The translations under genes and the position numbers were made by a program. Shown here piece after piece: positions 52,181-56,637 of a stretch of DNA of 64,000 bases. Source of the stretch: Pelagimonas sp. (lineage in GTDB: Bacteria; Pseudomonadota; Alphaproteobacteria; Rhodobacterales; Rhodobacteraceae); assembly GCA_025210265.1 (NCBI GenBank), contig JAOASD010000023.1, positions 310,001 through 374,000 of the forward strand, written 5' to 3'. Under the pieces are notes generated by a model. The model saw only the letters and a list, made by a program, of their open reading frames with translations. It was not told the origin of the DNA and ran no database searches. Position 1 is the first letter of the stretch. Each line of letters begins with the position of its first letter.

Positions 52181-53704
52181 CTAGCCAAGCGCCAGTTTGG
52201 CGGTTTGCTCTGGAACGCTTTGCTGTGCCGGGCTCTGGTTGGTAAATCGGACCAGGGTCGCCCCTGCTGCAACCGGCTCAATCATGCATTGCAGATGCCG
52301 CCCGTCGCGCAGTGTCAGCGGGACATCCCAGGGCTGTCGATCCTGCATGGTCAGGACATAATCGCGGAGCTCGCCCCAGACCGGGCTGGGATGGCAGGCA
52401 GTGGTCCATTCTGCGGTGGCGTCGACGATGCTGATTTCGGCAAAGCTGGAATCCGGGTCGCATTCCCACAGCTCTCGGTATGCAGAGTTCGAAAAGGTCA
52501 GAACCCCCAGCCGCGAGAACACCGCCACCGCGTCTGAAAAGCAGTCGATGACAGATTGGGTCAGCTCCAGTTCGGACCGGAAGCGGCGGGTCAGGGAAAT
52601 TTCGGCGCTGATGTCTTCTAGCAGAAAGGCAACGGCACCATCAGGATGCGGGCGACCGGTGATTTTGTAGGTCAGGCCGGACGCCAGATTCCATGTTTCG
52701 CTATAGCGGTCATCGCGCGCGGCCGAGATCACATCGTTCAGCTGTTCACGCCAATTGGCGTAGTTTTTGGGTTCCGGCATCATGCGGTTGTCGCGCATAT
52801 GGTCGAAAAAGCTCATCAGATTGGGGCGGGCTGACAGAAAATCCACCGGCAGGCGGGTCAGGTCCACCAGCGCGGGATTGAACAGCACCAGCCGGCGGTC
52901 ACGATCAAACACCGCAAGCCCGATGGGCAGATGCGCAAAGGTTTTGGTCAGGGTCTGGACAAAATTGCGCTGCGCGACCTCGGCATCAATCAGCGTGTCG
53001 ATGTCGGATGCAAAATGCACCCATCCGTCATCTGTTTTGCGCGATGTGATTTCGAACCAGCGCGCAGAGCCATGGCGCTGTTCGACGCGTGTGCGGGTGT
53101 TATGCGTGCCGGTTTGGTTTGACAGGTCCAGATCAAACGGAGAGGCCCCATCAATGGGGTGCTCTATGGCGCGGCATAGTTTTTCATAGGCGGCGTTCTG
53201 CCAGAAATTGCGCCCGCTTTCATCGGTTTCCCACATGGGAATCGGAGACAGATCAAAGGCGCTGGAAATGCGGTCCAGTTCTTTCAGGCTGGATTGAATG
53301 CGATGCTGTGCGCCAATCCCCAGAACCGGTCCGTTCAGACACAGGCGGATGAAGTGCCCTTCGACGGTGATGGTCAATTCCGTTTCCGAAAAATCATTGG
53401 CCATCAGGGTCAGCGGCGCTGTGGGCAGATCGGCCGGCAGGTCAGGAAAGCGCGGCGACAGGGCCGCGTGCAGATCGTCCCAATTAACGCCATTGACCGA
53501 CGTGCTGCCAAGGATTTCCAGCGCATCTGTGGTGCTGTCGATCACTGCGCCATCGCGCTGGATCAGAAAGGCGGTGTCGATGTGGCCCGCACCCTTTCCC
53601 GGAGCGGGGCGGGTGGATTGGATATAGCGAAACAGCACGATGGTGGCGATGATCATCGCCAGCCCACTGCCGATCCCGATTCCCAAGGCCAGAAAGCTGT
53701 TCAC
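52181..53704 (-). CDS. Membrane-anchored PAS-domain protein without a kinase domain
   Basis: A 507-residue protein with one N-terminal transmembrane segment (about 4-27, ALGIGIGSGLAMIIATIVLF) and three PAS-like regions (about 45-140, 150-240 and 255-365, for example HLPIGLAVFDRDRRLVLFNPALVDLTRLP), followed by a further PAS-like stretch (about 385-480, SVIDCFSDAVAVFSRLGVLTFSNSAY). I find no His-box, HATPase, GGDEF or EAL motif, so it looks like a sensor without an output domain. It begins with GTG behind AGGA. It lies 108 bp downstream of regB on the same strand, so it may feed into Reg signalling (inference). Confidence 0.82.
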   Translation of the reverse strand: MNSFLALGIGIGSGLAMIIATIVLFRYIQSTRPAPGKGAGHIDTAFLIQRDGAVIDSTTDALEILGSTSVNGVNWDDLHAALSPRFPDLPADLPTAPLTLMANDFSETELTITVEGHFIRLCLNGPVLGIGAQHRIQSSLKELDRISSAFDLSPIPMWETDESGRNFWQNAAYEKLCRAIEHPIDGASPFDLDLSNQTGTHNTRTRVEQRHGSARWFEITSRKTDDGWVHFASDIDTLIDAEVAQRNFVQTLTKTFAHLPIGLAVFDRDRRLVLFNPALVDLTRLPVDFLSARPNLMSFFDHMRDNRMMPEPKNYANWREQLNDVISAARDDRYSETWNLASGLTYKITGRPHPDGAVAFLLEDISAEISLTRRFRSELELTQSVIDCFSDAVAVFSRLGVLTFSNSAYRELWECDPDSSFAEISIVDATAEWTTACHPSPVWGELRDYVLTMQDRQPWDVPLTLRDGRHLQCMIEPVAAGATLVRFTNQSPAQQSVPEQTAKLALG

Positions 53705-53812
53705 CTGTCGTCCTCTTTTATCTGTATTTTAACCCTGATCTTACTCGGTGCTACGATAACATTGGTTAATGGCCCGTTAAAAATCGGTGCAGGCCTTTGA
53801 GCGCGCGCGGTT

Positions 53813-55210
53813 TCATGCCTGGATCGGAGGGTTTTCCCCGACAAAGGCATTGGGATGTGTGCTGTCAGGCAGGATCCGGGTCGTAGGCCAGACAACTTCG
53901 ACCACGGCGCCGCGTCTGGGGCGCTGCGTGTCATTGGGCCGATAGGGATCCCCGGCATTGGCAAAGCTGAGCGTCGCCCCCGAGCGTTCCAGCAGGGTTT
54001 TGGCAATGAACAGGCCCAGCCCCATACCTTCGTATTCGGGGCGCGCCTGCCGGTCGGCTTCGGTGCGGCGTTTACGGACAAACGGATCTCCGATGCGACC
54101 GATCATCTGCAGAGGAAAGCCGCGGCCATCGTCAATAATACGCACGGTGATTTCTTCGACGGTCCAGATCGCTTCGACCCAGACCGTGCTGCGGGCGAAA
54201 TCCACCGCATTCTGGATCAGATTGCGCAGCCCGTGGATGACTTCGGGATGGCGCATGATTTGGGGCTGTTGCGGGTTGCCCCCGGCACCGGGGCCTTCTT
54301 CGATGATGATGTCTTTGCCACGGTCCATATGGGGTTCTGCAGCTTCGCGGATGACCTCGACCAGCGGCGCTTTGCGGATATGCAGATCTTTTTTGCCAGC
54401 GCGCCCCATGCTGCGCAGAATATCGCGGCATCGGTCTGCCTGTTCGCGGATCAGCTGGGCGTCTTCTTTTAGTTCCGGCTGGTTCTGCAGATCTTCGATC
54501 AGCTCAGAAGATGTCAGTTTGATCGTCGCCAGAGGTGTGCCCAATTCATGCGCGGCGGCGGCCACAACGCCCCCCAGATCCGACAGCATCTGCGTTCTGG
54601 CAAATGCCATCTGCGTTGCTGATAGCGCATCGGACATGGCGTTCATTTCACGTGAAATTCGGCGCGAATACAGGGAAATAAACACCAGAGCGATGGAAAT
54701 CGCGGTCCATTGCCCAAACACGAACACATCCGGGATGCGCAGCAGGAACCCCTGTTCCGTGCGCAAAGGCAGGTGAAAAAACACCATGCCCGTGATCAGA
54801 ACAAACGCCGTGCCCCCCAGAATCACGGTCGAGCGCAGCGTCAGCACAGAGGCCGACACCGTCACAGGCCCAAGGATCAGCACCGAAAACGGATTGTGCA
54901 GCCCGCCTGTCAGGTACAGCAGAAAACACAGCTGCAAGAGATCAAACATCACCATCAGAAAGTTTTCAGTTTCCGACAGGCGTTTGTTTTCCGGGAACAC
55001 AAAGATCGCCACCAGGTTGCCTGCGACCGACAAGCCAACCGTCAGGTAACACAGCCCCAGCTCTAGCTGCAGGTTATACATGCGCTGGGCCACGGTGATC
55101 GCCACCAGCTGTCCGATGATGGCGACCCAGCGCAGCAGGATCATCGTGCGCAGGCGAATCCAGTTGCTGCGTTGTTCGCCGCCAATCAGGCTGAGATCAC
55201 TTTGTGTCAT
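53813..55210 (-). CDS. regB: Redox-sensing sensor histidine kinase RegB/PrrB
   Basis: A 465-residue membrane kinase controlling RegA in response to aerobic respiration and quinone redox state. It has six hydrophobic segments (about 22-185) containing the quinone-binding GGLHNPF (102-108), the H-box AAAAHELGTPLA with phosphorylated H221, the redox-active Cys C261 in EQADRCRDIL, and N and G boxes (NLIQNAVDFA, DDGRGFP, GMGLGLFIAK). H221/C261 keep the 40-residue spacing of R. capsulatus H225/C265. It is divergent from senC and regA as in photosynthetic relatives. A 14-bp palindrome resembling parS lies inside (54645-54658). Confidence 0.97.
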   Translation of the reverse strand: MTQSDLSLIGGEQRSNWIRLRTMILLRWVAIIGQLVAITVAQRMYNLQLELGLCYLTVGLSVAGNLVAIFVFPENKRLSETENFLMVMFDLLQLCFLLYLTGGLHNPFSVLILGPVTVSASVLTLRSTVILGGTAFVLITGMVFFHLPLRTEQGFLLRIPDVFVFGQWTAISIALVFISLYSRRISREMNAMSDALSATQMAFARTQMLSDLGGVVAAAAHELGTPLATIKLTSSELIEDLQNQPELKEDAQLIREQADRCRDILRSMGRAGKKDLHIRKAPLVEVIREAAEPHMDRGKDIIIEEGPGAGGNPQQPQIMRHPEVIHGLRNLIQNAVDFARSTVWVEAIWTVEEITVRIIDDGRGFPLQMIGRIGDPFVRKRRTEADRQARPEYEGMGLGLFIAKTLLERSGATLSFANAGDPYRPNDTQRPRRGAVVEVVWPTTRILPDSTHPNAFVGENPPIQA

Positions 55211-55334
55211 GTGCGCGCTTTCGCCCTTTGAAATTCCTGATGCGATTGTTACCTCAAACCCGCAGGCTCACAATGCTTTCCGTTCCGGTCTGTCTGCACT
55301 GTCTCATGGCCGGGCTATGTCGGATGAGGACCCC

Positions 55335-55967
55335 ATGTCGAAATCTTTTGCTCTTGTTGCTGCTGGTGCGACCGCGATTTTCCTGTCGGGCAGTTTTGCG
55401 GCCTCTGCCGGGTGGCTGGATGGTTTGCTGGGCAAAGGGGATGACGACCCGTTCGCCGCCTGTCGGCAGGGCGCCGTGGCCGGAGATATCGGCGGACCCT
55501 TCACCCTGCTGAACAAGGATGGCGAGACCGTGACCGATGCGGATGTCATCACGGAACCCTCGCTGGTCTATTTCGGCTATACATTCTGCCCCGATATTTG
55601 CCCGCTGGATACGGTGCGTAATGCCGAAGCCGTGGACGTCCTTGAGGAACAGGGCCATATGGTCACTCCGGTCTTTATCACCGTCGATCCAGCGCGTGAC
55701 ACGCCCGAGGCCGTTGGTGACTTTGCCGCCAATATTCACGAACGGATGATCGGCCTGACGGGCAGCGAGGAACAGGTGCGCGCGGCCTCAAAAGCCTACC
55801 GGACCTATTACAAGAAACAGGAGGGTGACGAAGATTATTACCTCGTCGATCACTCCACCTTTACCTATCTTACCCTACCCGAGCATGGATTCGTCGATTT
55901 CTTTCGCCGGGATCTGACCCCCGAAGACGTGGCCAAGCGCACCGCCTGTTTCATCAATGCCATGTGA
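55335..55967 (+). CDS. senC: SCO1/SenC-family copper chaperone
   Basis: A 210-residue thioredoxin-fold protein that delivers copper to cytochrome c oxidase CuA/CuB and, in this regulon, influences RegB signalling. It has an N-terminal signal or membrane anchor (about 4-25), copper ligands C85 and C89 in TFCPDICPLD, and the distal H173 in DHSTFTYL. ATG 55335 (MSKSFALVAAG) is used; an ATG six codons upstream (MSDEDP) is possible. It lies between divergent regB and the regA gene on the same strand, the standard regB-senC-regA arrangement. Confidence 0.95.
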   Translation: MSKSFALVAAGATAIFLSGSFAASAGWLDGLLGKGDDDPFAACRQGAVAGDIGGPFTLLNKDGETVTDADVITEPSLVYFGYTFCPDICPLDTVRNAEAVDVLEEQGHMVTPVFITVDPARDTPEAVGDFAANIHERMIGLTGSEEQVRAASKAYRTYYKKQEGDEDYYLVDHSTFTYLTLPEHGFVDFFRRDLTPEDVAKRTACFINAM

Positions 55968-56082
55968 TTGCGTCTGATTTAGCCCTAACATCGGTGGTTT
56001 AAACGGGGTCAATCGTTTGACCGCTGAAATATACAGGGCTAATAGTTGTTCTACACGGGCATCTTGCCGGGAGGACGGGTAT

Positions 56083-56637
56083 TTGGCGGAACGTAGCATT
56101 GAGGAACTGGGCGACGACCGCTCGCTTTTGCTGGTCGATGATGATGAACCCTTCCTGAGGCGTCTTGCCAAAGCCATGGAAAAACGCGGTTTCGATGTCG
56201 AGACCGCCGGATCCGTCACCGCGGGCACCGCTGTCGCCACGGCCCGCCCGCCGGCCTATGCTGTGGTCGACCTGCGGCTTGAGGATGGCAATGGGCTGGA
56301 TGTGGTCGAGGTGCTGCGCGAGAAACGCCCTGACAGTCGGGTTGTGGTTCTGACAGGCTATGGTGCCATCGCCACTGCCGTTGCTGCGGTCAAGATCGGC
56401 GCAACCGATTACCTGTCCAAACCCGCCGATGCGACCGACATCACCAACGCGCTGCTGGCCAAGGGTGATGACCTGCCGCCTCCGCCGGAAAACCCCATGA
56501 GCGCAGATCGCGTGCGCTGGGAACATATCCAGCGGGTCTATGAGCTATGCGACCGCAATGTCAGCGAAACGGCGCGGCGTCTGAACATGCATCGCCGCAC
56601 ATTGCAGCGCATTCTGGCAAAACGCAGCCCGCGCTGA
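56083..56637 (+). CDS. regA: Redox response regulator RegA/PrrA (ActR)
   Basis: A 184-residue response regulator, the same length as R. capsulatus RegA. The receiver domain has D19-D21, phospho-acceptor D63 in VVDLRLEDGNGLD, and Lys in DYLSKPAD. A proline linker (DLPPPPENP) precedes a Fis-type helix-turn-helix (CDRNVSETARRLNMHRRTLQRIL, in outline) for DNA binding. I chose the TTG at 56083 because GGGAGG lies at the right distance and it gives the exact family length; upstream ATG 56017 would add unrelated residues. It controls respiration, CO2 and nitrogen fixation genes in relatives. Confidence 0.95.
   Translation: MAERSIEELGDDRSLLLVDDDEPFLRRLAKAMEKRGFDVETAGSVTAGTAVATARPPAYAVVDLRLEDGNGLDVVEVLREKRPDSRVVVLTGYGAIATAVAAVKIGATDYLSKPADATDITNALLAKGDDLPPPPENPMSADRVRWEHIQRVYELCDRNVSETARRLNMHRRTLQRILAKRSPR

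What the first reader, a model, noticed from the sequence alone, without database searches (positions are those of the whole stretch)
52181..53704. Membrane PAS protein with no output domain beside regB
Several PAS-like regions and one membrane helix, but no kinase, cyclase or phosphodiesterase motif. It lies directly downstream of the redox kinase gene regB and upstream of tsaE. It may be a degenerate kinase, or a sensor that modulates RegB or another kinase by protein contact.
Basis: partly seen in the sequence, partly recalled or inferred. Interest (0 to 1): 0.5.

Follow-up and report, generated by a model that had tools for sequence, protein, structure and literature searches.

The report
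Kinase-less DivL beside regB
This gene encodes the short, kinase-less form of DivL, a membrane-anchored helper protein that tunes the kinase CckA and so the master regulator CtrA; it is a known and ordinary part of this bacterial group, sitting next to regB without good evidence of acting on RegB.

Summary
In detail: 52181-53704 (-) is a real 507-aa gene with one N-terminal membrane helix and four PAS-type units and no output domain, between regB and tsaE. It is the short DivL of Rhodobacterales, not an orphan sensor. Its PAS region aligns end to end with kinase-bearing DivLs of other alphaproteobacterial families (hhalign probability 100). The profile of these proteins matches the solved DivL kinase module best, and 37 of 40 carry DivL's tyrosine in place of the phospho-histidine. 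The kinase label changes once on the tree. No DivK orthologue was found in 24 of 24 kinase-less genomes tested, this one included. A perfect CtrA box, the only one in the window, lies between regB and the gene; 72 of 80 named relatives have one there. The genome also encodes CckA, ChpT, CtrA and a gene-transfer-agent marker. A published primer pair for R. capsulatus divL lands in an orthologue at the same locus. Most likely role, inferred from that orthologue: contacting CckA and favouring CtrA phosphorylation. Short DivL is in print since 2010, so this is already known. RegB control is unsupported.

The parts
52181..53704 (-). divL, kinase-less (short) form, 507 aa, GTG start
   Evidence: tree
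53615..53701 (-). N-terminal membrane helix, residues 2-30
   Evidence: model; hydropathy
53333..53575 (-). PAS-A, residues 44-124 (PAS-like order of strands and helices; weakest assignment of the four, no Pfam hit, hardly covered by the fold search)
   Evidence: model; aligned to long DivL from residue 48 on; coverage note
53003..53236 (-). PAS-B, residues 157-234
52544..53002 (-). conserved core: helix BC, PAS-C and helix CD, residues 235-387; mean majority-residue fraction 0.79-0.83 against 0.39-0.42 for PAS-A and PAS-B
   Evidence: Pfam PAS_7 at 257-369
52235..52531 (-). PAS-D, residues 392-490; the protein ends 17 residues later, where long DivLs continue into the kinase module
53766..53780 (.). 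CtrA box TTAATGGCCCGTTAA, 61 bp upstream of the divL start, in the 108-bp regB-divL gap
   Evidence: only match in the window, 0.07 expected; kept in relatives
53813..55210 (-). regB, redox sensor kinase, upstream neighbour
   Evidence: NF045988 775 bits
51587..52102 (-). tsaE, downstream neighbour; linked to divL also outside the family
   Evidence: PF02367; synteny

Best explanation
The gene is divL in its Rhodobacterales short form. Shown here: it is an orthologue, by sequence, tree and locus, of DivL proteins that carry a tyrosine pseudokinase module; that module is gone; no DivK orthologue was found in this 97%-complete genome; CckA, ChpT and CtrA are present; and a conserved CtrA box stands before the gene. 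Inferred from work on orthologues: the protein sits in the inner membrane, uses its cytoplasmic PAS domains to contact CckA and favours CckA's kinase state, raising CtrA~P and thereby CtrA~P-dependent functions such as late steps of gene-transfer-agent maturation. CtrA in turn raises divL expression, a feedback loop. My own inference: the strongly conserved PAS-C with its two flanking helices is the part that contacts CckA, and the variable PAS-A and PAS-B carry lineage-specific inputs.
For: Homology: hhalign of 30 short forms against 19 long DivLs, probability 100, E 1.6e-48, 451 columns, window residues about 48-495. The kinase part of one long form, L171, matches solved DivL 4q20 best, 174.9 bits against 108.4 for the next chain; the profile of 61 proteins gives 265.8 against 208.9. 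DivL tyrosine in 37 of 40 class loci. Locus: tsaE downstream on the same strand in 20 of 40 class loci and in 76 of 80 named short ones. Tree of 88 rows: the kinase label changes once, branch support 99. DivK at 61% identity or more: 19 of 20 class genomes, 3 of 6 family genomes with a kinase module, 0 of 24 without. CtrA box. Own genome: CtrA 431.9 bits, ChpT 101.6, CckA by its best PDB matches 5idj and 5idm. Orthologue tie: the R. capsulatus divL qPCR primers printed in PMC9143464 match an orthologue between regB and tsaE with a CtrA box, forward 0 and reverse 1 mismatch. Literature, all seen as passages: PMC2877005, PMC9430884, PMC9143464 (DivL promotes CtrA phosphorylation by enhancing CckA kinase activity), PMC6363796, PMC4211667, PMC11500502 (PAS domains of Caulobacter DivL required for CckA binding), PMC4046655 (D. 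shibae divL expression reduced in ctrA, chpT and cckA mutants, CtrA site in its promoter).
Against: No binding or activity data exist for this protein. The PAS identity to long DivL is low (23%). The primary R. capsulatus paper (Westbye 2018) is not held; I know it through citing passages and recall. Dysregulation of DivL is reported to raise, not lower, gene-transfer-agent production there (passage), so the effect on that output is not a simple activation. One organism with short DivL and a (probably acquired) DivK is on record, Thalassobius mediterraneum (passage), so the two losses are not strictly tied. 8 of 80 named loci have no exact box. TTAA-N7-TTAA is not enriched genome-wide over the same pattern read backwards (19 against 47); the case rests on position and conservation. 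The box before cckA seen in this genome is not general: with a crude choice of frame, 10 of 30 cckA loci have one at the start.
Confidence: 0.9

Rival explanations
1. It is a dedicated modulator of RegB: the PAS domains sense a redox or heme/flavin signal and act on the neighbouring kinase by contact.
For: Conserved adjacency with regB in the family, also in its kinase-bearing members. RegA loss lowers CtrA-regulon transcripts in R. capsulatus (passages of PMC7232146), so the two systems do talk.
Against: In 40 loci of other families divL is never next to regB, so DivL's role predates the neighbourhood. A CtrA box stands between the genes. Published roles of the orthologue concern CckA-CtrA and gene transfer agents.
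Confidence: 0.04
2. A sensor kinase with a cryptic or degenerate catalytic domain in its last 130 residues.
For: Its relatives and, by the tree, its ancestors had a kinase module.
Against: No Pfam kinase hit; a DivL kinase profile finds nothing at i-E<0.01 in the 80 named relatives and nothing in this one; the model shows residues 392-490 as a PAS unit with block pLDDT of 92 or more.
Confidence: 0.02
3. An unrelated PAS-only sensor that replaced divL at this locus.
For: PAS domains are widespread and identity to long DivL is only 23%.
Against: The kinase-bearing family members L151-L156 stand between the two sets in the tree, five of the six with both regB and tsaE adjacent; the alignment is colinear through the PAS units.
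Confidence: 0.03

Closest known systems
Short DivL of Rhodobacterales (R. capsulatus rcc00042; D. shibae Dshi_3433)
   Same: Membrane PAS protein without kinase module; same locus (primer match); CtrA site in the promoter as reported for D. shibae; no DivK found.
   Different: Nothing that separates them was found; function in this species is untested.
Caulobacter-type DivL pseudokinase
   Same: Homologous PAS region, linkage to tsaE in half of the class loci sampled, CckA-ChpT-CtrA relay present.
   Different: The DHp-CA pseudokinase module that reads DivK~P is absent here, as is a DivK orthologue; the CtrA box is typical of the kinase-less clade (2 of 40 class loci and 0 of 6 kinase-bearing family loci have it before divL).
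Multi-PAS sensors PpsR, FixL, DosP
   Same: Serial PAS folds; among the best structural matches (PpsR Z 11.4, 317 residues, rmsd 21.2; FixL Z 11.3, 221 residues, rmsd 4.5).
   Different: Only the generic PAS fold is shared (9-16% identity); cofactor binding was neither tested nor claimed.

Membership tests
DivL (full-length, Caulobacter type) | N-terminal membrane anchor followed by serial PAS domains | tested here: met
DivL (full-length, Caulobacter type) | Homology to kinase-bearing DivL over the PAS region | tested here: met
   hhalign probability 100, 451 columns; tree
DivL (full-length, Caulobacter type) | Pseudokinase (DHp-CA) module with tyrosine at the phospho-acceptor site | tested here: not met
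   absent; so it is not filed as full-length DivL. Its absence is the mark of the published short form
Short DivL (Rhodobacterales) | PAS-only, kinase module lost | tested here: met
Short DivL (Rhodobacterales) | No DivK in the genome | tested here: met
   best DivK match in this genome is 33% identical, inside a 986-aa frame; assembly 97.09% complete
Short DivL (Rhodobacterales) | CckA-ChpT-CtrA relay present | tested here: met
Short DivL (Rhodobacterales) | CtrA site in the promoter | tested here: met
   sequence only; binding not tested
Short DivL (Rhodobacterales) | Raises CtrA phosphorylation through CckA | not testable with these tools
   reported for the R. capsulatus orthologue (passages)
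Histidine kinase | HisKA and HATPase domains | tested here: not met
RegB accessory protein | Acts on RegB | not tested
   only adjacency is known

The most novel reading that the evidence does not exclude
Three changes fall on or next to one branch of the tree: loss of DivL's DivK-reading kinase module, loss of DivK, and gain of a CtrA box before divL. DivL would thereby have turned from a reader of DivK~P into a CtrA-induced PAS-only co-activator of CckA, with PAS-C and its flanking helices as the minimal CckA-contacting unit and with whatever PAS-A and PAS-B sense as the new input.
Probability: 0.45. Interest if true: 0.4.

Novelty: already known. Interest (0 to 1): 0.2.

Why it matters
It gives a firm name and pathway to a gene that looks like an orphan sensor, and stops a mistaken link to RegB. 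For the field, the conserved CtrA box and the strongly conserved PAS-C core are practical pointers: a natural kinase-free DivL isolates the part that acts on CckA, which in Caulobacter comes together with DivK reading in one protein.

Tried and rejected
Hidden HATPase in the C-terminal part: rejected. The own-genome second match L002 as CckA: rejected; it is a PAS hybrid kinase beside a FIST-like frame, of the NahK type by my reading; CckA is the frame in L211. A PAS-region homologue in the PDB by sequence: phmmer with the window protein found none at E<=1. In the structure searches no DivL chain appeared among the 50 rows shown in each, which excludes nothing. CtrA box before cckA as a general trait: left open; 10 of 30 loci with a crude choice of the longest frame, some of them probably on the wrong strand. 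Heme, flavin or disulfide chemistry: not pursued; cysteines and histidines were only listed. The search for papers with regB, divL and Rhodobacter together gave 3, of which 2 were listed; in the passages of PMC7232146 that I saw the gene neighbourhood is not discussed. Westbye 2018 is not held.

Choices that bear on counts. The 20 family loci L151-L170 were picked by me from the list for unusual frame lengths or short matches, so they are no random sample. The 40 class loci L171-L210 are high scorers outside the family, one per genome; on the way down the list I passed over G201, G272, G229, G283, G276, G159 and G310 and a second match in G151; 118 of 192 genomes in that call had a match. The 50 genomes and the 30 were chosen by me. 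The named loci L071-L150 and the unnamed L003-L031 may share species (L003 and L075 have the same box), so I do not add their counts. L157 (frame running into tsaE, probably a frameshift) and L193 (no tail) were left out of the tree, which is a quick search with SH-aLRT support only and has several long branches. A3 holds 67 of the 80 named loci. One search counted 71 of 80 boxes; one search showed that L075, counted as a miss because its frame opens far upstream, has the box in the regB-divL gap, hence 72.

Full report
What is there. The reading frame 52181-53704 (-) encodes 507 residues from a GTG with a plausible ribosome site. It has one hydrophobic segment at the N-terminus and only PAS matches in Pfam. 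The AlphaFold2 model (68 sequences, mean pLDDT 90.0) shows a membrane helix and four PAS-type units in series; the low pTM (0.49) means that their relative placement is not reliable. The last 130 residues hold the end of a linker helix, a PAS unit and a short tail, not an ATPase.

What it is. Upstream lies regB and downstream tsaE. The second neighbour is the telling one. I took 40 high-scoring loci of other alphaproteobacterial families for a profile of this protein. In 39 of the 40 the protein runs on for 200 residues or more past the phospho-acceptor site of a kinase-like module; the residue at that site is tyrosine in 37, phenylalanine in one, lysine in one, and one protein ends before it. 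Of the 61 proteins in that alignment (these 40, 20 family members and the window's), Pfam finds HisKA in 44 and HATPase_c in 39. Tyrosine there is the published hallmark of DivL (PMC4211667, passages). The kinase part of L171 matches the solved DivL module 4q20 with 174.9 bits, the next chain having 108.4; the profile of all 61 gives 265.8 against 208.9. In 20 of the 40 loci tsaE follows on the same strand within 2 kb; regB is beside none. The window's family of short forms aligns with 19 of these DivLs over 451 columns at probability 100.

How it came to lack a kinase. Six family members that I fetched (L151-L156), five of them with both regB and tsaE adjacent (the contig of L153 begins 312 bp before its frame, too near to show regB), still carry the module, recognised by a DivL kinase profile at 93-163 bits; this protein gives no match, 0 of 80 named relatives match at i-E<0.01, and L157-L170 give nothing significant. 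On a tree of 88 rows the kinase label changes once, with support 99 (quick method, some long branches). With DivK as query in 50 genomes of my choice, an orthologue at 61% identity or more is found in 19 of 20 class genomes (the 20th has a partial match of 55%), in 3 of 6 kinase-bearing family genomes (two more at 45-47%, one with nothing above 33%), and in 0 of 24 kinase-less ones, this genome included (best listed match 38%). This repeats on another sample what Brilli et al. 2010 (PMC2877005), Childers et al. 2014 (PMC4211667) and Vega-Baray et al. 2022 (PMC9430884) state; the last also report one exception, Thalassobius mediterraneum, with short DivL and a DivK that looks acquired.

Regulation. 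TTAATGGCCCGTTAA at 53766-53780 is the only TTAA-N7-TTAA in the window, with 0.07 expected, and lies in the 108-bp gap between regB and this gene. In the first 30 loci, the window's own included, the box is present in 26. Among 80 named Rhodobacteraceae loci one search counted 71, with 60 different spacers; one search adds L075, so 72 of 80, and leaves one occurrence away from divL in about 0.7 Mb of flanking sequence. It is found in 0 of 6 kinase-bearing family loci, 11 of 14 other hand-picked family loci and 2 of 40 class loci. In this genome one of 19 sites is here and another stands 44 bp before the opening of the cckA frame. The pattern is not enriched genome-wide over its backward reading (19 against 47), and a box at cckA was seen in only 10 of 30 loci, so position and conservation at divL carry the argument. 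For D. shibae, CtrA sites before divL and cckA and lower divL expression in ctrA, chpT and cckA mutants are in print (PMC4046655, passages); for R. capsulatus, divL transcripts fall in ctrA knockouts (PMC6363796, passages).

Tie to the tested gene. The forward qPCR primer printed for R. capsulatus divL in PMC9143464 (gene rcc00042) was searched in 394 family genomes: 7 match with at most one mismatch. All 7 loci hold a match to the window protein. In the exact match, L256, the forward primer fits with 0 and the reverse with 1 mismatch, 82 bp apart start to start, inside an orthologue (39% identity) that has regB before it, tsaE after it and a CtrA box between regB and divL. In the other six the reverse primer does not fit within two mismatches. 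The gene tested in R. capsulatus is thus, to all appearance, the orthologue of this one at the same place.

How it most likely works. This genome has CtrA, ChpT, CckA and a gene-transfer-agent marker (PF13547, 503.8 bits). In R. capsulatus DivL is reported to promote CtrA phosphorylation by enhancing CckA kinase activity (passage), while dysregulated DivL goes with more gene-transfer-agent production (passage). In Caulobacter the PAS domains of DivL are required for CckA binding, and the kinase module is the proposed dock for DivK~P (passage of PMC11500502). A DivL reduced to membrane anchor and PAS domains in a cell without DivK therefore most likely keeps the CckA arm and has dropped the DivK arm. 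Conservation fits: helix BC, PAS-C and helix CD have mean majority-residue fractions of 0.80-0.83 in 30 sequences, PAS-D 0.58, PAS-A and PAS-B 0.41-0.42. That PAS-C is the CckA contact is my inference.

RegB. The adjacency is conserved in the family (79 of 80 named loci, the other untestable) but was not seen outside. RegA does affect the CtrA regulon in R. capsulatus (PMC7232146, passages), so cross-talk exists, but nothing I saw shows that DivL acts on RegB. I rate that at 4%.

Verdict. A real gene, correctly seen, whose identity and pathway are already in print. What I add is the single change of the kinase label on a tree, the breadth of the box conservation, and the PAS-C core. Interest is low.

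Noticed in passing
L158-L161 (four family genomes): Kinase-less DivLs of 677-759 aa keep about 140-195 residues after the site of the lost module that match no kinase profile; perhaps decayed kinase modules, halfway to the short form.
   Followed up: partly
L154, L155, L156: Kinase-bearing DivLs of three family genomes with histidine, not tyrosine, at the phospho-acceptor site, in genomes with a diverged DivK (45-47%) or none above 33%.
   Followed up: no
L081, L085, L088, L089 (all titled Puniceibacterium) and L008: No tsaE was found between divL and amgK; where it went was not checked.
   Followed up: no
L157: The divL frame breaks near residue 350 and its open frame runs on into tsaE; probably a frameshift or assembly error.
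   Followed up: no
PMC4046655 and PMC6473078: The literature is not of one mind on D. shibae divL: Dshi_3433 in the 2014 paper, while the 2019 paper names both Dshi_3433 and Dshi_3346, the latter with kinase and receiver domains (passages).
   Followed up: partly
G000:C27:225769-225783: Another TTAA-N7-TTAA lies about 12 kb before the gene-transfer-agent TIM-barrel gene at C27:237576; it may front that cluster.
   Followed up: no
window 55080-56637: On the other strand beyond regB, two frames read as SenC/SCO1-like and RegA-like, the usual regB neighbours (my reading, no family search run).
   Followed up: no
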